The notes beneath the pieces were generated by a model. It had not been told where the DNA came from, made no database searches, and worked only from the letters and a program-made list of their open reading frames with translations. DNA of 25,419 bases, taken from assembly GCA_028688535.1 (NCBI GenBank), contig JAQTXY010000002.1:1-25419 (forward strand), read 5' to 3'. This DNA comes from Methanothrix sp. Its GTDB lineage: Archaea; Halobacteriota; Methanosarcinia; Methanotrichales; Methanotrichaceae. This document shows positions 5,856 through 15,770 of this stretch, piece after piece (within the stretch, counting starts at the first letter, position 1; every line of letters begins with the position of its first letter). A program made the translations under genes and the position numbers.

Positions 5856-6743
5856 ATGAACAATGTCGATCGAATTATGGATTTGACACCTGTTCAAAGA
5901 GACATCTTAACCGCATTGATCAACATTCATCGTGTTGAAGGGCGAGCAGTGAAGGGCGAGGAGATTGCCGAGCTGATCGACAGAAATCCCGGCACCATCC
6001 GAAATCAGATGCAGTCCCTCAAAGCATTGAACCTGGTAGAAGGCGTGCCCGGTCCCAAGGGCGGGTACAGAGCTACGGGCTCAGCTTTCGAGGCGCTCAA
6101 TATCGAGGCCACGGGTGATGTTGTAACCGTTCCCGTAATCCGCAATGGAGTGATGATGGAGGGGACCACCGCCAGCGAGATCATCTTCAACAAGGTCATG
6201 CACTCCCAGCTTTGCGACGGCGTGGTGCGCATCATCGGCAATATACGAGAATTCAATGTAGGAGATGGAATTGAAGTAGGGCCAACTCCCGTAAACAAGC
6301 TCTACATCAAGGGAACTGTCACCGGCAGGGACGACACCATGAGCCGCCTCATCTTCCATATCGAGGAGATGATATCCGTGCCCAAAGTAGCAGTTAAGGG
6401 AATCGCGAGGCGGGCCATACACATACCGCCCACCGCCTCATTGCAGGAGGCATCGCGCATACTGGTGCACAATGGCGTCTCCGAGGCTCTGGTGGACGAC
6501 AGTTCACCGGGATTGATCAATCTGGCAGACATCACTCGCGCCGTGGCGGACGGCAGGACCAATCAGGAAGCTAGGGAGATCATGAACCGCAGCTTTTTGA
6601 CCATCGACTCTGAGGAGCCCATCTACGAGGCCATCAAGATGCTGGGCCGGACAGCCGCCAGCCAGTTGGTGGTCACCGAGCAAGGAGCCATGTGGGGCAT
6701 TGCCTCGCCCGGCGACCTGGTCAAGACGCTTACTCCGATCTGA
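5856..6743 (+). CDS. Transcriptional regulator, winged HTH plus CBS pair
   Basis: The product is 295 residues from ATG 5856, or 288 from ATG 5877, which gives the family-like start MDLTPVQRDILTALINIH and fits the TATA position better. Residues about 8-70 form a winged helix-turn-helix (EEIAELIDRNPGTIRNQMQS, then LVEGVPGPKGGY). A middle domain (about 80-175) follows, and two CBS motifs fill the C-terminal 120 residues (HIPPTASLQEASRILVHNGV; IDSEEPIYEAIKMLGRTAAS). CBS pairs usually sense adenine nucleotides or S-adenosylmethionine, so this looks like an energy- or SAM-responsive DNA-binding protein of the COG2524 type. The target genes are unknown. The 3' end overlaps pyrH by 14 bases, tail to tail. 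Confidence 0.85.
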   Translation: MNNVDRIMDLTPVQRDILTALINIHRVEGRAVKGEEIAELIDRNPGTIRNQMQSLKALNLVEGVPGPKGGYRATGSAFEALNIEATGDVVTVPVIRNGVMMEGTTASEIIFNKVMHSQLCDGVVRIIGNIREFNVGDGIEVGPTPVNKLYIKGTVTGRDDTMSRLIFHIEEMISVPKVAVKGIARRAIHIPPTASLQEASRILVHNGVSEALVDDSSPGLINLADITRAVADGRTNQEAREIMNRSFLTIDSEEPIYEAIKMLGRTAASQLVVTEQGAMWGIASPGDLVKTLTPI

Positions 6744-8269: not shown

Positions 8270-8286
8270 TTCATAACTAGTATGAA
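8270..8286 (+). promoter_or_regulatory. Putative operator TTCATA-N5-TATGAA before amt1
   Basis: TTCATA (8270-8275), spacer ACTAG, TATGAA (8281-8286): perfect 6-bp arms. The same 17-bp architecture stands before amt2 (twice) and before the secreted protein gene at 10386. It lies just upstream of AT-rich TATA candidates (aaaatatttt at 8284-8293 and tttttatag at 8302-8310), a position suited to repression. Confidence 0.6.
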
Positions 8287-8353
8287 AATATTTTAACAAA
8301 GTTTTTATAGCATCTACAGCTCGTTGATCTTCCATCGAGGATCGTGATTGAGC

Positions 8354-9781
8354 ATGAAAATTACAAAGTATGCAACTATTGCAGCAAGTTCTTTCGTATT
8401 ACTGCTGCTATTAACAACTATGGCGATGGCAGGCGATCCGAACGGCTCTGGTACCTATACAGATGATGTAGCTGGGCTGAAGATCGCCACCAACTTCGCA
8501 TGGACACTCGTGGCGGCCTTCCTGGTCTTCTTCATGCAGGCCGGGTTTGCCCTGCTGGGTGCCGGTGCTCTAAGAGTGAAAAACACAGTCAACTACTTCA
8601 CTAAAAGCTACATGGACTTCTCCATAGGTGCCCTAGCCTACTGGGCGGTAGGATTTGCCCTCATGTTCGGAGGCTCCAAGCTATTTGCGGGCCTAGAAGA
8701 GGGCAACAGCATCATTGGATGGAGCGGGTGGTTTCTCACAGGAGATGCCTATGACGTCTCAACGATGATGTTCTGGATGTTCCAGGTCGTCTTCGCAGCT
8801 ACAGCCGCCACCATAGTCGCCGGTGCCTGCGCAGAGAGACTCAAGCTTCAGACCTATCTCATCTACAGCGGAATTGTCACCGCTATCATCTACAGCATCT
8901 ACGGCCATTGGGTTTGGGGCGGAGGCTGGCTATCAACTCTACCCTACGGGGTGGGCGCCAGGGACTTTGCCGGCTCAGGCGTGGTGCATGCCATCGGCGG
9001 CCTTGTCGCTCTTGCTGCCATAATGCTCCTTGGGCCTAGGATCGGCAAATTCAACAAAGACGGTACACCAAACGCCATACCGGGTCACGACGTGGGCTAC
9101 ATTGTTCTGGGCACATTTGTGCTCTTCTTCGGATGGTTTGGATTCAATCCGGGATCGACTCTGGCAGCCACGGATCTTCGCATATCAGTGATAGCGGTCA
9201 ATACCTTCCTGGCAGGATCCGCCGGAGCGGTGCTGGTTTGCTACTGGACATTCCTCAAGACGAAAAAGGTGGACATTGCCCTGACCTGCAACGGCGCTCT
9301 GGCTGGCCTTGTAGGAGTTACTGCGCCCTGTGCCTACATCCCCACCTGGGCGGCAGTGGTAATTGGATTGGTGTCGGGTTTAATAGTGATGTACGGCATA
9401 AGGTTCAATGAATGGGTGCTCAAAGTAGACGACCCTGTAGGTGCTGTAGCAGTGCATGGTTATAACGGCCTTTGGGGTCTGCTGGCAGTGGGAATCTTCG
9501 CAGACGGCACCTACGGTGGAGTAAGCGGCCTTATCGTCGGCAATACCGGCCAGATGATGGCCCAGCTCATTGACGTGGCAACAGTCGCCGTTTGGGCATT
9601 TGGAAAAGGCTATATACTGTTTGCCCTGCTAAAGCACACCGTCGGCCTGAGAGCATCAAGAGAAGAAGAGCTGGCAGGAATGGATATCAGCGAACATGGA
9701 TACTCCGCCTACCCAGAGTTCATTACTCAAGAGACAGGCGAAGGCCTTGCAGTAAAATCTTCTGAATTGGTGAGAACATGA
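8354..9781 (+). CDS. amt: Ammonium transporter, Amt family (copy 1)
   Basis: Amt proteins carry ammonium/ammonia across the cytoplasmic membrane as trimers. The 475-residue chain starts at ATG 8354; GTGAT lies five bases upstream, and an in-frame TTG at 8348 falls inside that spacing. A signal-like N terminus (SFVLLLLLTTMAMAG) is followed by 11 expected membrane segments. Family marks are FMQAGFALLGAGALRVKN, ACAERLK, the GHWVWGGGWL block and the two pore histidines in VVHAIGGL and VAVHGYNGLWG. The C-terminal tail (GLRASREEELAGMDISEHGY) is the regulatory helix that interacts with PII. Its TGA overlaps the glnK start by four bases (ATGA), so translation is probably coupled. A putative nitrogen operator precedes it. 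The copy at 12333-13634 is clearly diverged, not a recent duplicate. Confidence 0.96.
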   Translation: MKITKYATIAASSFVLLLLLTTMAMAGDPNGSGTYTDDVAGLKIATNFAWTLVAAFLVFFMQAGFALLGAGALRVKNTVNYFTKSYMDFSIGALAYWAVGFALMFGGSKLFAGLEEGNSIIGWSGWFLTGDAYDVSTMMFWMFQVVFAATAATIVAGACAERLKLQTYLIYSGIVTAIIYSIYGHWVWGGGWLSTLPYGVGARDFAGSGVVHAIGGLVALAAIMLLGPRIGKFNKDGTPNAIPGHDVGYIVLGTFVLFFGWFGFNPGSTLAATDLRISVIAVNTFLAGSAGAVLVCYWTFLKTKKVDIALTCNGALAGLVGVTAPCAYIPTWAAVVIGLVSGLIVMYGIRFNEWVLKVDDPVGAVAVHGYNGLWGLLAVGIFADGTYGGVSGLIVGNTGQMMAQLIDVATVAVWAFGKGYILFALLKHTVGLRASREEELAGMDISEHGYSAYPEFITQETGEGLAVKSSELVRT

Positions 9782-10116
9782 AAATGATACAGGCGATAAT
9801 CAGACCTTCCAAGGTAGAAGATGTAAAGAATGCCCTTGACGAAGCCGGCTACGTAAGCCTGACCTCCATCGAGGTAAAGGGACGAGGTCGACAGAAAGGC
9901 ATAACACAGATGTGGCGTGGCGAAGAATACAAAGTGGACATGCTCCCCAAGGTGAAGGTGGAGATTGTTGTCCCGGATGATAAAGAAGACGAGGCTGTTG
10001 AGCTGATAAGGAAAGCAGCACATACCGGGAACATCGGCGATGGAAAGATCTTCGTTTTGCCTGTGGAAAAGACCATCCGGATCAGGACGGGTGAGACGAA
10101 CGGCAAGGCTCTCTAG
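9778..10116 (+). CDS. glnK: Nitrogen regulatory protein PII (copy 1)
   Basis: PII/GlnK senses 2-oxoglutarate and ATP/ADP and plugs the Amt channel when nitrogen is sufficient. The 112-residue length is normal. It begins MKMIQAIIRPSKVEDVKNAL. The T-loop block GRGRQKGITQMWRGEEY has Tyr51 at the position uridylylated in bacteria, although archaea generally do not modify it. The C-terminal signature TGNIGDGKIFVLPVE shapes the nucleotide site. Start ATG 9778 overlaps the amt stop; a second in-frame ATG at 9784 is better spaced from GGTGAG (9770-9775). The gene is co-transcribed with amt1. A T-run (10128-10133) follows the stop. Confidence 0.96.
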   Translation: MKMIQAIIRPSKVEDVKNALDEAGYVSLTSIEVKGRGRQKGITQMWRGEEYKVDMLPKVKVEIVVPDDKEDEAVELIRKAAHTGNIGDGKIFVLPVEKTIRIRTGETNGKAL

Positions 10117-10122
10117 CCTGCC

Positions 10123-10135
10123 GTGATTTTTTACT
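10123..10135 (+). terminator. T-run after glnK1
   Basis: The gtgattttttact stretch contains six consecutive T, just beyond the glnK1 stop codon, and fits archaeal oligo-T termination. No strong stem is seen. Confidence 0.4.
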
Positions 10136-10240
10136 GCCTCGGCGCTTCCTATGAGCAGACATTATTTATTTTTATCCAAACGCTCCGTTATTCATCGGGC
10201 GGCGAAGCTGTTTTTATATGTCGAGATAGTATTGAATGCC

Positions 10241-10282
10241 AATTCATAACTGTTATGAGAAATACTGTAATCGTTATGAATT
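10241..10282 (+). promoter_or_regulatory. Putative operator cluster before the secreted protein gene
   Basis: TTCATA-ACTGT-TATGAG (10243-10259) matches the amt operators with one mismatch. In addition AATTCATAAC (10241-10250) and GTTATGAATT (10273-10282) form a perfect 10-bp inverted repeat with a 22-base spacer, about three helical turns centre to centre. TATA candidates lie on both sides: tttttatatg (10211-10220) and aatatcatatac (10292-10303). Confidence 0.6.
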
Positions 10283-10385
10283 TTCATCCAATAATATCAT
10301 ATACGTGATCAGTAAGTAGCATTAATTGACCTTCGTAGATGGCAATTCTGGTGAAGGTCAAGCGCAATTCACAGGAGGGATAGAT

Positions 10386-11324
10386 ACGAAGAAGTTAGGG
10401 ATAATACTATTATTAATGGCCTTCTTGACCAGTATTGCATCTGCAGAATATACCCTTCAGAACAACCTCACTCTGGAGATGAAACAGAGCGTGACCGGCT
10501 CGGGCTACTTCATGAATTACAAGTATGCGAAGATGCCCAATACCCTGGGACTCTCTGGAACAGGCAACAATGGTGTTGAAGTTCTGGACTACAGCCACGG
10601 CAGCGGCTCGATCGATACGGAATCGATACTGTCCACCGAAAGTTCCGATTATACTAATTACGGAGTCGACCAGAGCGACGACTACGAACCGGATCATGCC
10701 GAGGCGCTAAGCTGCATCCAACTCAAAGAAGACAACGCCATGGTGTATAGTCCAATGGTCATTTCCGTTGGCACGGGATTTTACGCAGCCAGTCCGCTGC
10801 AGTTTAACTCCCTGATAAAGGAGAAGAGCTGGCTTAAAAATCGCGGATCAGCCACATTGATGCACCATGAGGTAGAATATGCCCATGCCCTGGACAAGGA
10901 ACTGGAAATCCTGGCCAAGGACTTCATCTCTGAGGATGATCCCAGCGTGAGCATGATGAACATCTCGGAGGATATGACGGACGGACGTGCGCATATCGGG
11001 ATGTTGCAGGGAGATCCTGATATCGTATCCGAAGAAGATGAAGATGAAAATACATTCATAGCAAACACTGCCTGGAAGAAGCCGCTGGTGGATGTGGATG
11101 AAGACTACTGGGGAACTTACCACATTGAGAAGCTCATGAACCTCACAGCATCGGTGGATGAGACTGAGGAAGATGATGACTGGTTGCCCTGTTGTTCCGG
11201 TGGATATCTGACCATGCCAGAAACATACCAGAAGGGAAGCAAAGGATTTGGCTCAGATGTGACGGGCATCTTTGATTGTACCTGCTTCAAGGCTCCAGCT
11301 GTTGCCGAGTTTCCAAGGTTATGA
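10386..11324 (+). CDS. Secreted acidic protein, apparent ACG start
   Basis: The product has 312 residues. A strong AGGAGGG site (10373-10379) lies six bases before ACG AAG AAG TTA, which would read MKKLGIILLLMAFLTSIASA, a textbook signal peptide, if ACG were a start codon. The only in-frame upstream candidate is TTG 10326, which places 20 hydrophilic residues before the signal peptide and ignores the ribosome binding site. So either ACG initiates, or an ATG has mutated. The mature chain is acidic (runs such as EEDEDE and ETEEDDD) with N-x-S/T sequons (NLT, NIS, NLT) and a C-terminal Cys cluster (CC, then CTC). I recognise no catalytic domain. It lies between two amt-glnK pairs and has amt-like operators upstream, which suggests nitrogen-linked control. 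A hairpin terminator overlaps its stop codon. Confidence 0.75.
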   Translation, partial: TKKLGIILLLMAFLTSIASAEYTLQNNLTLEMKQSVTGSGYFMNYKYAKMPNTLGLSGTGNNGVEVLDYSHGSGSIDTESILSTESSDYTNYGVDQSDDYEPDHAEALSCIQLKEDNAMVYSPMVISVGTGFYAASPLQFNSLIKEKSWLKNRGSATLMHHEVEYAHALDKELEILAKDFISEDDPSVSMMNISEDMTDGRAHIGMLQGDPDIVSEEDEDENTFIANTAWKKPLVDVDEDYWGTYHIEKLMNLTASVDETEEDDDWLPCCSGGYLTMPETYQKGSKGFGSDVTGIFDCTCFKAPAVAEFPRL

Positions 11325-11346
11325 GGATACCTTGGTCTCTTTTTTC
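11313..11346 (+). terminator. Hairpin and T-run after the secreted protein gene
   Basis: CCAAGGT (11313-11319) and ACCTTGG (11329-11335) form a perfect 7-bp stem around a 9-base loop containing the TGA stop, followed by tctcTTTTTT. Confidence 0.7.
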
Positions 11347-11509
11347 GCGGCTGGACAATTATCTAAAGAAAGTGTGATCATCTGCAATGCACTTGGCTTT
11401 GGCTGGATAACGAGAGAGATCGTCCACGGTGATTCTCACCCCCCTGGGCAAATGAAGTTAGAATCGACACATTCAAGGGCAAGCAACAAGACAGGCTGCC
11501 CATTTTGGA

Positions 11510-11642
11510 TCATAGGTCTTTCTTGACCTTATTCTCCAGCCTTTGCCGATCCTCTCGGGCCTGGGCCGCCATTGGACTGCCTAATTCCATGAAGGCTGAC
11601 TCTGCCTGGCGGATCAACTACAGAGCTTTATCAAAATGTCCT
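11510..11642 (-). pseudogene. C-terminal remnant of a TPR-like protein
   Basis: The minus strand reads HFDKAL, stop (TAG), LIRQAESAFMELGSPMAAQA, then REDRQRLENKVKKDL and TGA at 11510-11512. This matches the last helix pair of tetratricopeptide proteins (KALELYRQAE...ELG...A). An in-frame TAG sits where a Glu/Gln codon is usual, and a further TAA lies upstream near 11645. The rest of the gene is gone, and an IS200/IS605-like hairpin begins 35 bases beyond. It is a dead fragment. Confidence 0.5.
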
Positions 11643-11679
11643 TCTTACTCTTGTAAAAAATCAAACTGCGCGCTGCCAT

Positions 11680-11698
11680 CCCACCCTAAAGGGATGGG
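11680..11698. mobile_element. IS200/IS605-like end hairpin, copy 1
   Basis: CCCA-CCC-TAAA-GGG-a-TGGG folds into a stem with a TAAA loop and one bulged A. This subterminal palindrome shape (CCCAC..CTAAAG..GTGGG) is typical of IS200/IS605-family ends. No tnpA or tnpB is present nearby. Confidence 0.5.
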
Positions 11699-11733
11699 TT
11701 ATGCTTCGGGCCGCGCGCCCAGGTTGACCGGAT

Positions 11734-11765
11734 TTCAGGAACATCCGAACCTTTAGTTTCCTGAA
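11734..11765. repeat. Inverted repeat TTCAGGAA-N16-TTCCTGAA
   Basis: Perfect 8-bp arms at 11734-11741 and 11758-11765. It lies between the two IS-like hairpins and far from any start codon, so it is more likely part of the mobile remnant than an operator. Confidence 0.45.
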
Positions 11766-11861
11766 TATGCTCATCAGAATAATTGCATATTTGCGTTCGG
11801 CTGCATGATAGACTTGTTAATCAATCTCAAGAAAACATGAAATCCTGGAGAGGGTTCACTT

Positions 11862-11898
11862 CATCCCCAACCTAAAGGATGGGGAATTCGTGACCCTC
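11862..11898. mobile_element. IS200/IS605-like end hairpin, copy 2
   Basis: The segment CCCCA-a-CC-TAAA-GG-a-TGGGG (11865-11884) has the same loop and bulge layout as the hairpin at 11680. The flanks (ttcact before; gaattcgtgaccc after) resemble the right end of tnpB-carrying IS605 relatives. The transposase body is absent. Confidence 0.55.
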
Positions 11899-11982
11899 CG
11901 TACACCCGTTGTATTAAAATAATAATATAAGTAAAAGATTAAAATAATGAACGTATCGATCAGGGCCTTTGCAAGCGCGAGG

Positions 11983-12321
11983 CTATACTGCCCCGCACCC
12001 CCGCTCCTTCGTGCGCACACGCACCACATCATCTACCGGGTAGATGAAGATCTTGCCGTCTCCAGCTTCACCAGTTTGGGCAAACTCGCAGATGAGGTCG
12101 ATGACGGCTTCTGCATCCCTGTCATCCACCACCATCTCCAGCTTCATCTTCGGCAAAAACTCCACCCGGTAATCACCGGCCCGCCACTGCAAGGTGACGC
12201 CCTTCTGGCGGCCCCGGCCCTTGACCTCGCTCACCGTCATTCCCGAAAAGCCCTTACTGTCCAGCTTGCCACGCAGCAGGTGCAGCTTCTCAGGCCGAAT
12301 TATGGCTTCAATCTTCTTCAT
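11983..12321 (-). CDS. glnK: Nitrogen regulatory protein PII (copy 2)
   Basis: This 112-residue PII protein begins MKKIEAIIRPEKLHLLRGKL. It has the T-loop block GRGRQKGVTLQWRAGDY with Tyr51, and the C-terminal signature TGEAGDGKIFIYPVDD. It differs from copy 1 mainly in the N-terminal helix and the T-loop tip (LQWRAGD against TQMWRGEE), the part that contacts Amt, so each PII is probably matched to its own transporter. It lies 11 bases after amt2 in the same transcript. Its ATG is preceded by GGGGG-type purines inside the short gap. Confidence 0.96.
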   Translation of the reverse strand: MKKIEAIIRPEKLHLLRGKLDSKGFSGMTVSEVKGRGRQKGVTLQWRAGDYRVEFLPKMKLEMVVDDRDAEAVIDLICEFAQTGEAGDGKIFIYPVDDVVRVRTKERGCGAV

Positions 12322-12332
12322 ATTCCCCCACG

Positions 12333-13634
12333 TTACATGTAAGCGCCTTCGCCATGCTGGCTGATGTCCAATCCCACCGATTCTTCATCTTCCCGCACCC
12401 GCAGTCCCATGACTGCATCGATGACTCTGGCCAGGCCGAAGGTGACAATAAATGAGTAGACCCAGGTTACAGCTATGGCCAAGAGCTGCACCATTACCTG
12501 ATGAGAATTTCCGGAGAGCAGACCAGTAGCTCCGATGGTGGCAAAGATGCCCGTAGCCAGTACGCCCCAGGTGCTGCCTATGCCATGACAGGCCAAAACG
12601 TCCAGCGAATCGTCCACCCTGGCGCTTCCTCGGATCAGGACGATAGCATAGTAGCCAACAATGGCAGCTACAATGCCTATAGGTATCGCTGCCAGAGGTG
12701 TCACATAGCCTGCTGCGGGCGTTATTGCCGCAAGACCAGCCACAGCTCCCGTCACCATGCCCAAGGCGGATGGCGCCCTCTGTCGCCAGGAGAGGAGCAT
12801 CCAGGTGGTGGCAGCAGCCGCAGCGGAGGTATTGGTAGTAACGAAAGCATTGGCTGCAATGCCATTTGCCGCCAGAGCCGAGCCAGCGTTAAAGCCGAAC
12901 CATCCGAACCAGAGCAAAGCCGCGCCGATGACGGTAGTGGGAATGTTGTGCGGCTCCATCGGATCAGTGCCAAAGCCCTTACGAACACCGATAACCATAG
13001 CTACTGCCATTGCCGAGACGCCTGCCGTGATGTGCACCACTATGCCGCCGGCAAAGTCCAGGGCGCCCATCTGCTGCAACCACCCCCCGCCCCAAACCCA
13101 GTGAGCCACAGGATCGTAAACCAGAGTAGCCCAGGCCAAAGAGAAGACGAGAAACGAGCTGAACTTGATCCTCTCCACATAGGAGCCAGTGATCAGAGAG
13201 ACGGTGATGATGGCGAACATGGCCTGAAAGATCATAAAGGTAAGCGAGGGAATAGTCAGCCCCTCTTTCACGCCCATGCCAACACCCGCTAGGCCCAGGA
13301 AGTCCAGGCCGCCTATGAGACCGCCTATATCTTTTCCGAAGACCAGGGTATAGCCGTACAAGATCCATTGCAGGCTTATGATGCCCATAACGGCAAAGCT
13401 GAAGATGATCGTGGAGATGGCATTCTTCTTTCTAACCATGCCTCCGTAGAAGAGGCCCACGCCGGGAATCATAATCAGAACCAGAGCAGAACTGATCAGC
13501 ACCCAGGCGTTATCAGCGCCATTGATGGCAGAATCTTCAGCCGAAGCTGCACCTGCCAACAGTGTTGATATTAGTAAACATAATAATAGTAGTGACCGGA
13601 TGGAGAGCAACATTACCACCAATAAGTAAGACAT
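12333..13634 (-). CDS. amt: Ammonium transporter, Amt family (copy 2)
   Basis: The product has 433 residues. A cleavable signal peptide (LLLLCLLISTLLAGAASA) precedes 11 expected membrane helices. Marks are MIPGVGLFYGGMVRKKN, the canonical AmtB-type entry block; YVERIKF; AHWVWGGGWL; the pore histidines in VVHITAGVSAM and LACHGIGSTWG; and the C-terminal GLRVREDEESVGLDISQHGE helix that binds PII. Copy 1 instead has FMQAGFALLGAGALRVKN in the entry block, so the two belong to different Amt subgroups. Start ATG 13634 follows a probable TATA near 13672 with a short leader; an in-frame ATG at 13610 would also leave a signal peptide. Two putative operators lie immediately upstream. Confidence 0.96.
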   Translation of the reverse strand: MSYLLVVMLLSIRSLLLLCLLISTLLAGAASAEDSAINGADNAWVLISSALVLIMIPGVGLFYGGMVRKKNAISTIIFSFAVMGIISLQWILYGYTLVFGKDIGGLIGGLDFLGLAGVGMGVKEGLTIPSLTFMIFQAMFAIITVSLITGSYVERIKFSSFLVFSLAWATLVYDPVAHWVWGGGWLQQMGALDFAGGIVVHITAGVSAMAVAMVIGVRKGFGTDPMEPHNIPTTVIGAALLWFGWFGFNAGSALAANGIAANAFVTTNTSAAAAATTWMLLSWRQRAPSALGMVTGAVAGLAAITPAAGYVTPLAAIPIGIVAAIVGYYAIVLIRGSARVDDSLDVLACHGIGSTWGVLATGIFATIGATGLLSGNSHQVMVQLLAIAVTWVYSFIVTFGLARVIDAVMGLRVREDEESVGLDISQHGEGAYM

Positions 13635-13675
13635 AATCCTATCTAATAAGCATATTTAGGAGAAATTAAGTATAA

Positions 13676-13692
13676 TTCACAAGGTGTATGAA
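13676..13692 (-). promoter_or_regulatory. Putative operator 1 before amt2
   Basis: TTCACA-AGGTG-TATGAA matches the TTCATA-N5-TATGAA consensus with one mismatch. On the minus strand it overlaps the likely TATA element (gaattatac, 13669-13678), so a bound protein would block TBP. Confidence 0.6.
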
Positions 13693-13709
13693 AGGATCTT
13701 AAGTCAGGG

Positions 13710-13726
13710 TTCATAAAGTGTATGAA
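13710..13726 (-). promoter_or_regulatory. Putative operator 2 before amt2
   Basis: TTCATA-AAGTG-TATGAA has perfect 6-bp arms. It is a direct copy of operator 1 shifted by 34 bp (about three helical turns). The resemblance extends to the right over about ten more bases (AAGATCATAA against AGGATCTTAA). Confidence 0.65.
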
Positions 13727-13748: not shown

Positions 13749-15770
13749 TCAATTCACAGAGCCAGGAGGGCCTCGGGCAAGCTTTTGTTTTCGCTTCTCC
13801 TCCTTCTTTCTCTCCACCCGATACTCCTGGAAAAGGCTCTCCAGCCTCTCTGCCTGCTGCCTGGCCAGGCGATCCTTCATCTCCTCCTCCCAGGCAGTGA
13901 TGGCAGCAGCCACATCTTCCTGTCGCACAAAGGGCATGTTATTGATCATCTGCACAGGCAAGCTACTACGAGAGAAGATGGCAATGCCATTTTGCAAGAA
14001 GTGCTCACGCATGGCAGGGCTGGGCTCGCCCCCAGCCACCACACCCGAAATCTCCAGATCATGCAGAAGCTCTACCGTGCTCCTGCCGCCGCCGCTGGCA
14101 TCTTCCAAAAAGACCCAATCGCCCTTTCCCAAACGATGCTGCTCGATCGATTGCTGAATCGACTCGCGGGTAAAGGCGGCCAGCGGCTTGAGCCTTTGCA
14201 GGCCGTATGTATCCTCGATAATCTCCGCCTTCCGCTGGCGCTCCAATATTTTCTTCAGTTTCTTGATATGTTTTCTCTCAGAGCGCAGCACCGACCGGAG
14301 GCGTTCTATCTCTTTGTCTCGAATCTTGATCTCATGCTGCCGTTTTATCTCGCGAGCTGTTTTATCCCTCAGGCGATCCAGTTTTCCATTGGCAATATTG
14401 AGTTCAACCTCTTTTTCAGCTAAACGAGAGCGCAGCTCATCCGCATAAGAGCGCAATGTTCTTACCTGCTCGGCAAGCTGCTGGCTGTGCTGGCGCAAGG
14501 CTGCGATATCAGGAGAGGCATCAAGCGACGAATCAAGAACGTCCACCGCCTCCACCCTCTGGTCCTGCTGCCCCCCCTTTTGAACTGAGGTAGCTGAAGT
14601 TGGCACAAATTCGGCGATGGCATTTTCAATGGAAAAGCCTCGTACTACCAGAGCTTTCACCTCATCAGGATCGATCTCGGGAGGTGATTTCTTCTCTACC
14701 AATAGGAATTTATTTTTATATTTTTTAAAAGCGCTGACGGCTGCAGCCAGAGCATCGCGCTCATGATCGTTCCTGTAGCCAAATTCCTTTCCTAAAGCGA
14801 TCTTCTCTTCCGCCGGGATGTCTCCTCCCGGTGAGTAGAGAACGGCATTAAAAGCGCGCTTGACCTTCTCGACTCCGCCGGGCGTGGGAAATACGTCAGT
14901 TGCGACCAGCAGAGATCTGCCCCGAGCTGCAATCCATTCAATCACATCTGAGGAGGACAGGCCCCTGGAGCTGGTCAGGTCCACCAGCTCACCGGATAGG
15001 TTCAACACGGCGATGCCCGTCGTCGTTCCCGGGTCCAGCCCCACGATGATATATCCGCGCCTTTGCAGAAGCGGTTTGTACTGCAGCTCGGGCCGCTCCA
15101 TGCTCTGCACCAGGAGCTGGGCATCGCTATAGTAGCCGGGATTGATGCGCACCTTCTCGCGGGGCGCTTCTACCACAAACTCGGCCCTGGTATATCCGCC
15201 CAGGCCCTCCACGGCCCGTGAGGTGTACTGCAGTCCCGCTTCACGAAGCTGCTTTTCCACCTCTCGTGCCAGACCCATCACGGCGCCATGGATCTTGCGA
15301 GTATAGCGGTTCTGACTCCAGCCGCCCCTGCCTAAAGAACGCCTCCGGCTGACCTTGATCCAGGTCCTCTCCTGGAAGGCGGATAGAACCACACCTACTC
15401 CTTTAGCAGCCAGCCGGGCGCAGACCTCAGCCTCTTGCAGTGGATTGGTGCGATCGAAGGTGATGCCGTGATAGCGAGCCAGCTTGATGAGGGACTGCGG
15501 CCTCTCTGCGCCCGTTACCTGCACCATTTTTGTAGTAGGAGGCATCCGGCGCAAGATATCGATGAGCTCTCTTCGATCCGCGGCCAGCTCGTGCAGATTG
15601 TCCATGGCCACTATCTCCGGTTGGCGCTCCCTGATGAGCCGGATCAGCTTATGCCGGCTGATCATGTGAAAACCGGCCACGTTTCCCTCGTCCAGGATCA
15701 CCAGAGAGTAGAAGGGCATCCTTCTAGCGGATGGCGAGCCGCTGGCAATGTCCACCCCAAATATGCTCAA
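13749..15770 (-). CDS. DUF460 protein, RNase H-like fold with coiled coil
   Basis: The product has 673 residues, typical of the archaeal DUF460/COG2433 family. Residues 1-230 include MSIFGVDIASG and IVAMDNLHEL. Near residues 240-256 is a second RNase H-like strand, IIVGLDPGTTTGIAVLNL, with Asp246, related to RuvC/YqgF-type nucleases. Around residues 410-520 a long charged segment (EVELNIANGKLDRLRD, RDKEIERLRSVLRSERKHIK) should form a coiled coil. The substrate is unknown; a nucleic acid role is expected. The start is TTG 15770, whose TTGA overlaps the rio2 stop by four bases, so the two are translationally coupled. Coupling with rio2 makes a part in ribosome or RNA processing plausible (inference). 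Confidence 0.88.
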   Translation of the reverse strand: MSIFGVDIASGSPSARRMPFYSLVILDEGNVAGFHMISRHKLIRLIRERQPEIVAMDNLHELAADRRELIDILRRMPPTTKMVQVTGAERPQSLIKLARYHGITFDRTNPLQEAEVCARLAAKGVGVVLSAFQERTWIKVSRRRSLGRGGWSQNRYTRKIHGAVMGLAREVEKQLREAGLQYTSRAVEGLGGYTRAEFVVEAPREKVRINPGYYSDAQLLVQSMERPELQYKPLLQRRGYIIVGLDPGTTTGIAVLNLSGELVDLTSSRGLSSSDVIEWIAARGRSLLVATDVFPTPGGVEKVKRAFNAVLYSPGGDIPAEEKIALGKEFGYRNDHERDALAAAVSAFKKYKNKFLLVEKKSPPEIDPDEVKALVVRGFSIENAIAEFVPTSATSVQKGGQQDQRVEAVDVLDSSLDASPDIAALRQHSQQLAEQVRTLRSYADELRSRLAEKEVELNIANGKLDRLRDKTAREIKRQHEIKIRDKEIERLRSVLRSERKHIKKLKKILERQRKAEIIEDTYGLQRLKPLAAFTRESIQQSIEQHRLGKGDWVFLEDASGGGRSTVELLHDLEISGVVAGGEPSPAMREHFLQNGIAIFSRSSLPVQMINNMPFVRQEDVAAAITAWEEEMKDRLARQQAERLESLFQEYRVERKKEEKRKQKLARGPPGSVN

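What the first reader, a model, noticed from the sequence alone, without database searches (positions are those of the whole stretch)
8270..13726. One 17-bp inverted repeat marks three promoters of an amt-glnK region
TTCATA-N5-TATGAA occurs perfectly before amt1 (8270-8286) and amt2 (13710-13726). With one mismatch it occurs again before amt2 (13676-13692) and before the secreted protein gene (10243-10259). Spacer length is identical in all four while spacer sequence differs, as expected for a dimeric regulator site. The NrpR operators described in Methanococcus (GGAA-N6-TTCC) and Methanosarcina (GGTA-centred) look different, so this may be the site of a divergent NrpR or of another nitrogen regulator.
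Basis: partly seen in the sequence, partly recalled or inferred. Interest (0 to 1): 0.8.

Follow-up and report, generated by a model that had tools for sequence, protein, structure and literature searches.

The report
Nitrogen control site in Methanothrix
A short mirror-image DNA sequence sits at a fixed place just ahead of the promoters of ammonium-uptake and glutamine-making genes in Methanothrix, a methane-producing microbe, and it looks like a nitrogen switch built differently from the one known in related methanogens.

Summary
It is far above chance: 52 exact copies against 2 of a reversed control in 25 same-genus genomes, 14 against 13 in 16 genomes outside the family. By my reading 39 of the 52 lie at amt-glnK, glnA, glutamate-synthase or hisHF promoters. 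It is the control site of an ammonium-assimilation regulon of Methanotrichaceae.

This is activator geometry, not NrpR-repressor geometry. (2) G041 and G015 show no NrpR and G044 only a decayed remnant, yet sites persist.

Against: nifH lacks clear sites, some lineages have few, and incomplete assemblies may explain G041 and G015. The binding protein is unidentified; re-specified NrpRI and another regulator are about equally likely. Everything is computational.

The parts
8270..8286 (+). operator, exact palindrome TTCATAACTAGTATGAA, before amt1-glnK
   Evidence: orthologous site in 11 of 12 genus amt1 promoters with <=1 mismatch within 250 bp
8290..8308 (+). predicted BRE/TATA element of amt1, starting 3 bp after the operator
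8354..9781 (+). amt1, ammonium transporter
   Evidence: PF00909, E 1.5e-120
9778..10116 (+). glnK-type P-II protein
   Evidence: PF00543, E 2.2e-32
10243..10259 (+). operator with one mismatch before the secreted-protein gene
   Evidence: kept in the 5 orthologous promoters compared
10326..11324 (+). secreted protein of unknown family
   Evidence: ORF; no Pfam family; relatives in several genomes
11983..12321 (-). glnK-type P-II protein
   Evidence: PF00543, E 6.7e-33
12333..13634 (-). amt2, ammonium transporter
   Evidence: PF00909, E 5.3e-121
13644..13662 (-). predicted BRE/TATA element of amt2, starting 13 bp after the proximal operator
13676..13692 (-). proximal amt2 operator, one mismatch
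13710..13726 (-). distal amt2 operator, exact palindrome, 34 bp upstream of the proximal one

Best explanation
The palindrome is the operator of the ammonium-assimilation regulon of Methanotrichaceae: amt-glnK operons, glnA, archaeal glutamate synthase, the divergon between an FMN glutamate-synthase-like gene and hisHF, and some lineage-specific genes. A dimeric regulator binds it just upstream of the BRE and, because the distance to BRE/TATA varies in steps of one helical turn, touches TFB/TBP on one face of the DNA. Most likely this recruits TFB/TBP and switches the genes on when nitrogen is short, so it works like an archaeal activator site and not like the NrpR repressor operators, which lie downstream of TATA. 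Shown by computation: conservation, gene set, position, phasing. Inferred: protein binding, response to nitrogen, sign of control, TFB/TBP contact. Not settled: which protein.
For: Enrichment 52 against 2 in the genus, 31 against 6 in 24 other family genomes, 14 against 13 outside the family (my sums). Sites with <=2 mismatches within 200 bp in the genus: amt 45 of 55 (1.8 expected), glnA 14 of 18 (0.8), gltB1 14 of 15 (0.2). Phasing: 114 of 118 strong BRE/TATA matches at 3, 13 or 23 bp; unseeded motif search: 37 of 39 at 3 or 13 bp. Orthologous gltB1 promoters shift from 3 to 13 to 23 bp between genera. Opposite geometry of GGTA-N6-TACC in the Methanosarcina-type family. Precedents, passages only: TrmBL1 activates from upstream and represses from downstream (PMC4706686); archaeal activators typically bind upstream of the BRE (PMC5512572).
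Against: No expression or binding data. No activator protein identified and no regulator gene with its own operator found among the hits inspected. nifH promoters have no clear site. The most complete genus genome, G004, keeps a good site only at one amt promoter (1 mismatch). Genus g16 has the site at glnA (1 mismatch, 3 of 3) but not at amt (0 of 4). Orthologous promoters are not independent samples. A repressor reaching TBP/TFB from upstream would give the same phasing.
Confidence: 0.5

Rival explanations
1. Re-specified NrpRI: the known archaeal nitrogen repressor, with its DNA-reading helix changed so that it reads TTCATA-N5-TATGAA instead of GGTA-N6-TACC, still repressing under nitrogen excess but now from upstream of the BRE, with NrpRII reaching TBP/TFB.
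For: The gene set matches the M. mazei NrpR targets glnA and glnK-amtB (PMC11456600, passage). NrpR (PF01995) is found in 40 of 41 and 18 of 19 genomes searched. In 34 of 34 family NrpRI sequences compared the presumed recognition helix has Asn where 12 of 12 in the Methanosarcina-type family have His. GGTA-N6-TACC is at chance level in genus amt, glnA and gltB1 promoters (1 of 55, 0 of 18, 0 of 15), so no other NrpR site is apparent there. NrpRII contact with TBP/TFB in M. mazei is known from a paper title only (Weidenbach 2010, reference list).
Against: Position upstream of BRE, opposite to the NrpR operators seen in relatives and described for M. maripaludis (PMC5512572, passage). Odd spacer (N5) against even (N6). 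G044 (99% complete) has only an NrpR remnant but keeps glnA (1 mismatch) and gltB1 (2) sites, although its amt2 site is degraded (3 mismatches). G041 (93% complete) has no NrpR match and 5 exact sites; G015 (78%) none and 3 exact. The helix change may be ordinary divergence.
Confidence: 0.4
2. The binder is the MreA-family winged-helix paralogue encoded next to hisHF (a special case of the best explanation).
For: Member of NCBIfam NF053756 (161.5 bits, cut-off 100). It lies within about 2.1 kb of hisH in 30 of 80 loci of the family scan, all 30 among the 34 loci with >=76% identity. It also occurs in the fetched neighbourhoods of G041 and G051.
Against: The other 46 of 80 loci, further paralogues and homologues, lie near none of the nitrogen genes searched for. 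No operator before its own gene in the family promoters examined. MreA of M. acetivorans is described as a regulator of fpo and acetate genes (PMC12918732, passages). Some proximity reflects that windows were fetched around nitrogen genes.
Confidence: 0.05
3. A strong upstream basal-promoter element rather than a regulated operator.
For: AT-rich and fixed relative to BRE/TATA.
Against: 39 of 52 exact genus sites are at nitrogen-assimilation promoters; the palindrome has a spacer of fixed length and often an extra half-site one turn upstream.
Confidence: 0.04

Closest known systems
NrpRI operator of Methanosarcina (GGTA-N6-TACC)
   Same: Palindrome at promoters of amt, glnA and gltB1 orthologues; NrpRI and NrpRII genes are present in most genomes of both families.
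   Different: Other sequence, odd spacer, and upstream of BRE instead of downstream of TATA.
TrmBL1 site of Pyrococcus (TATCAC-N5-GTGATA; PMC4706686, passages)
   Same: 6-N5-6 architecture, 17 bp; upstream placement goes with activation there.
   Different: Other half-site sequence and sugar-metabolism targets; no TrmB-family protein was tested here.
EarA boxes of Methanococcus (PMC5512572, passages)
   Different: Four 6-bp boxes at the archaellum operon, not a palindrome of nitrogen genes.

Membership tests
NrpR operator, Methanosarcina type | sequence GGTA-N6-TACC | tested here: not met
   <=1 mismatch in genus promoters: amt 1 of 55 (1.2 expected), glnA 0 of 18, gltB1 0 of 15; Methanosarcina-type family glnA 8 of 13 (0.8 expected)
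NrpR operator, Methanosarcina type | lies downstream of the TATA box | tested here: not met
   114 of 118 strong cases have the BRE/TATA element after the palindrome; in the Methanosarcina-type family 13 of 15 operators have a clear TATA before them and 0 after
NrpR operator, Methanosarcina type | bound by NrpRI, released by 2-oxoglutarate | not testable with these tools
   needs purified protein
NrpR operator, Methanosarcina type | nrpR gene in the same genome | tested here: inconclusive
   present in most; no match in G041 and G015, remnant in G044, all three with sites
NrpR operator, Methanococcus type | sequence GGAA-N6-TTCC (recalled) | tested here: not met
   <=1 mismatch: amt 3 of 55 (5.0 expected), glnA 1 of 18 (1.6), gltB1 0 of 15 (1.1); but 8 of 10 hisH promoters (1.1) and 11 of 21 promoters of the second glnA-type gene (1.8) do carry it
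archaeal activator site upstream of BRE | position just upstream of BRE with constant helical register | tested here: met
   3, 13 or 23 bp in 114 of 118
archaeal activator site upstream of BRE | transcription stimulated by the bound protein | not testable with these tools
   needs in vitro transcription or a reporter

The most novel reading that the evidence does not exclude
Methanotrichaceae control ammonium assimilation by a nitrogen regulator other than NrpR, an activator that docks on TFB/TBP from a helically phased site upstream of BRE. It took over the NrpR targets, and NrpR could then decay in some lineages (G044, perhaps G041).
Probability: 0.45. Interest if true: 0.82.

Novelty: new variant of a known kind. 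Interest (0 to 1): 0.68.

Why it matters
Methanothrix is held to be a leading acetate-using methane producer (general knowledge) and is described as slow-growing and genetically intractable (PMC12918732, passage); my searches listed no paper on its nitrogen operators. The result gives a defined site, a target list and a spacing rule. It suggests that within one archaeal class the operator of a core regulon was replaced and moved from the repressor side to the activator side of the promoter. The gltB1 promoters with 3, 13 and 23 bp spacing are natural spacing mutants that can be tested in vitro.

Tried and rejected
A fully symmetric 37-bp operator, my first reading of the flank logo (note), was dropped: only 1 of 99 sites has both outer half-sites, and the right one overlaps the BRE in the 3-bp class. 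Known RNA element near the hisH promoters: no match at gathering score in six sources. NrpR autoregulation: 0 of 19 genus nrpRI promoters with <=2 mismatches. The CBS-HTH gene of the window (5856-6743): its only match among the loci then held was the window itself, so no linkage seen. A transcription factor next to glnA: none recognised by eye in the neighbourhoods printed. The extended regulon at one mismatch in G012, G019 and G041: of the 19 stretches fetched, most hits lie inside genes or beside unrelated genes. I expected NrpR and operator to be lost together in G044; glnA and gltB1 keep theirs. Absence of NrpRI in five genus genomes (G007, G013, G015, G016, G056) is about what draft incompleteness predicts (about 3.9 expected, my arithmetic), so I use only G015, which lacks both NrpRs.
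Full report
WHAT IS THERE. They lie before amt1-glnK, before a secreted-protein gene and, as a pair 34 bp apart, before amt2-glnK.

IS IT MORE THAN CHANCE. The exact pattern occurs 52 times against 2 for the reversed control in 25 genomes of the same genus (g1, own included), and 14 against 13 in 16 genomes outside the family (my sums). In 24 other genomes of the same family it is 31 against 6 (my sums). At one mismatch the own genome has 20 against 9, so isolated one-mismatch hits mean little. Calling the outgroup family f3 'Methanosarcina-type' rests on kinship and on its GGTA-N6-TACC operators, not on a name in a call.

REGULON. Of the 52 exact genus sites, 39 lie at amt-glnK, glnA, archaeal glutamate synthase (gltB1) or the divergon between an FMN glutamate-synthase-like gene (gltB2) and hisHF (hisH is 'gltB3' in my scripts) (my reading; Pfam and NCBIfam for GlnA, the synthase parts and HisH; HisF by eye). 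Two of the 39 (G008:C68, G023:C225) sit after glnA at a contig end and are counted by position. The other 13, named by eye: a sugar-nucleotidyltransferase/glycosyltransferase divergon in 4 genomes, a formate/nitrite-transporter-like gene in 2, a gltA/fdh-like divergon and a YaaH-like transporter in G006, and 5 inside or beside other genes. Best mismatch 0/1/2/3/4+ within 250 bp in the genus: amt1 5/6/0/0/1 of 12; amt2 12/5/2/0/0 of 19; other amt 3/3/10/7/0 of 23; glnA 1/8/5/4/0 of 18; gltB1 9/4/1/0/1 of 15; gltB2 6/2/1/0/0 of 9; hisH 8/0/0/0/2 of 10. Shuffles gave at most 0.12 per group at one mismatch. Not carrying it: nrpRI (0/0/0/1/18 of 19) and nifH (0/0/0/8/7 of 15, where 3 mismatches is above the 1.6 expected). 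A second glnA-type gene is intermediate (0/0/4/7/10 of 21; 0.26 expected at 2). glnA was not found in the own, 78% complete genome. In G041 three sites lie 0.7-1.1 kb ahead of kdpABC, which an amt gene follows (KdpA).

POSITION AND PHASING. An unseeded motif search of the 60 bp after the gene-proximal site in 39 genus promoters found one element, ATCTTAAATAGGTAT, at 3 bp in amt1 (11 of 11), glnA (8 of 9, the ninth at 13) and gltB1 (10 of 10), and at 13 bp in amt2 (7 of 8; one at 17); the single amt3 gave 33. I then scanned all family promoters with a 19-position matrix seeded by hand with one example per promoter type; this second scan is not blind. Of 143 promoters with a site of <=2 mismatches, 118 had a strong match, and 114 of these start 3, 13 or 23 bp after the palindrome: amt1 3 in 12; amt2 13 in 27; other amt 3 in 21; glnA 3 in 25, 13 in 1; gltB1 3 in 21, 13 in 4, 23 in 1; gltB2 3 in 2. 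Exceptions: gltB2 at 2 bp (3) and the second glnA-type gene at 7 bp (1). None of the 10 hisH-side sites had a strong match. Orthologous promoters are not independent, but amt1, other amt, glnA and gltB1 are different promoters with one spacing, amt2 adds one turn, and gltB1 of genus g15 adds one or two. This is what contact between the bound protein and TFB/TBP predicts.

EXTRA HALF-SITES. An inverted half-site (TTATGA, at least 5 of 6) lies one turn upstream in amt1 10 of 15, amt2 18 of 25 and hisH 6 of 15 sites; a direct one in glnA 8 of 9 and hisH 8 of 15. Chance is about 1.3% per site for the inverted form; it was not computed for the direct form, which was allowed three registers. gltB1 has neither (0 of 13). 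nifH promoters share a conserved TCATA...TCACA pair about 10 bp apart, which may be a diverged version.

COMPARISON WITH NrpR. M. mazei uses GGTA-N6-TACC (PMC3177094, passages). In f3 this operator (<=1 mismatch, 200 bp) is at glnA 8 of 13, amt 4 of 13, gltB1 3 of 11 and nifH 2 of 4, while TTCATA-N5-TATGAA (<=2) is at none of these; in g1 the reverse holds: amt 45 of 55, glnA 14 of 18, gltB1 14 of 15 against GGTA 1, 0 and 0. In f3, 13 of 15 such operators have a clear TATA box 9-19 bp before them and 0 after. In M. maripaludis the operators are described as downstream of TATA just after the start site (PMC5512572, passages). So the same genes appear to have swapped both operator and side.

WHO BINDS. 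NrpR occurs in nearly all genomes (40 of 41; 18 of 19). All 34 family NrpRI sequences compared have Asn where 12 of 12 in f3 have His in the presumed recognition helix; the two f2 sequences have Tyr. That fits a re-specified NrpRI. Against it: G044 (99% complete) has only an NrpR remnant with frame breaks (35% identity to the own NrpRI over 197 residues) and no HTH_12 match over the cut-off, yet keeps glnA (1 mismatch) and gltB1 (2) sites in register, though amt2 has decayed to 3. G041 (93% complete) has no NrpR and five exact sites; G015 (78%) none and three; missing contigs could explain both. An MreA-family protein beside hisHF is a weak candidate. I put NrpRI at about 0.4 and another regulator at about 0.5.

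RESULTS THAT DO NOT FIT WELL. Genus genomes G002, G003, G010 and G013 have no exact copy. G004, the most contiguous, has one exact copy, not at a nitrogen gene, and only one amt promoter with a one-mismatch site. Genus g16 has no site at amt (0 of 4) but one-mismatch sites at glnA (3 of 3). Two g18 genomes have NrpRI with the Asn helix but no exact copy.

LITERATURE. Searches pairing Methanosaeta or Methanothrix with NrpR, nitrogen regulation, or ammonium transporter plus promoter listed no paper on this site by title or abstract (listings only). Most subscription papers, among them the main NrpR papers, are not held. Of the papers cited I read passages only.

VERDICT. A real, family-wide nitrogen operator with activator-type geometry, new as far as these searches reach; the regulator is unidentified and the sign of control untested.

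Noticed in passing
hisH promoters of genus g1, e.g. L058, L047, L070: A second palindrome, GGAAAAGCTTTTCC, fits the Methanococcus-type GGAA-N6-TTCC; 8 of 10 hisH promoters carry GGAA-N6-TTCC with <=1 mismatch against 1.1 expected. It could be an NrpR site or an RNA hairpin; no Rfam match.
   Followed up: partly
promoters of the second glnA-type gene, genus g1: GGAA-N6-TTCC with <=1 mismatch in 11 of 21 promoters against 1.8 expected.
   Followed up: no
L336 (G044:C93): Decayed NrpR remnant with frame breaks in a 99% complete genome; no other NrpR match there.
   Followed up: partly
L323:3658-10504 (G041:C96): Three sites ahead of kdpABC followed by an amt gene, a possible link between potassium and ammonium uptake.
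   Followed up: no
nifH promoters, e.g. L175, L171: Strongly conserved block with TCATA and TCACA about 10 bp apart ahead of BRE/TATA and a conserved leader.
   Followed up: partly
L061, L067, L055, L031, L422: A sugar-nucleotidyltransferase/glycosyltransferase divergon carries the site in five genomes (exact in four, one mismatch in G019).
   Followed up: no
L080:1320-1336 and L052:1770-1786: A YaaH-like transporter gene (by eye) lies near the site in G000 (one mismatch, upstream) and G006 (exact).
   Followed up: no
L435-L467, L498: An MreA-family regulator gene is a close neighbour of hisH in 30 of these 34 loci.
   Followed up: partly
window 13749-15770 (-): DUF460-domain gene just upstream of amt2, ending at 13749 next to the distal operator.
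   Followed up: no
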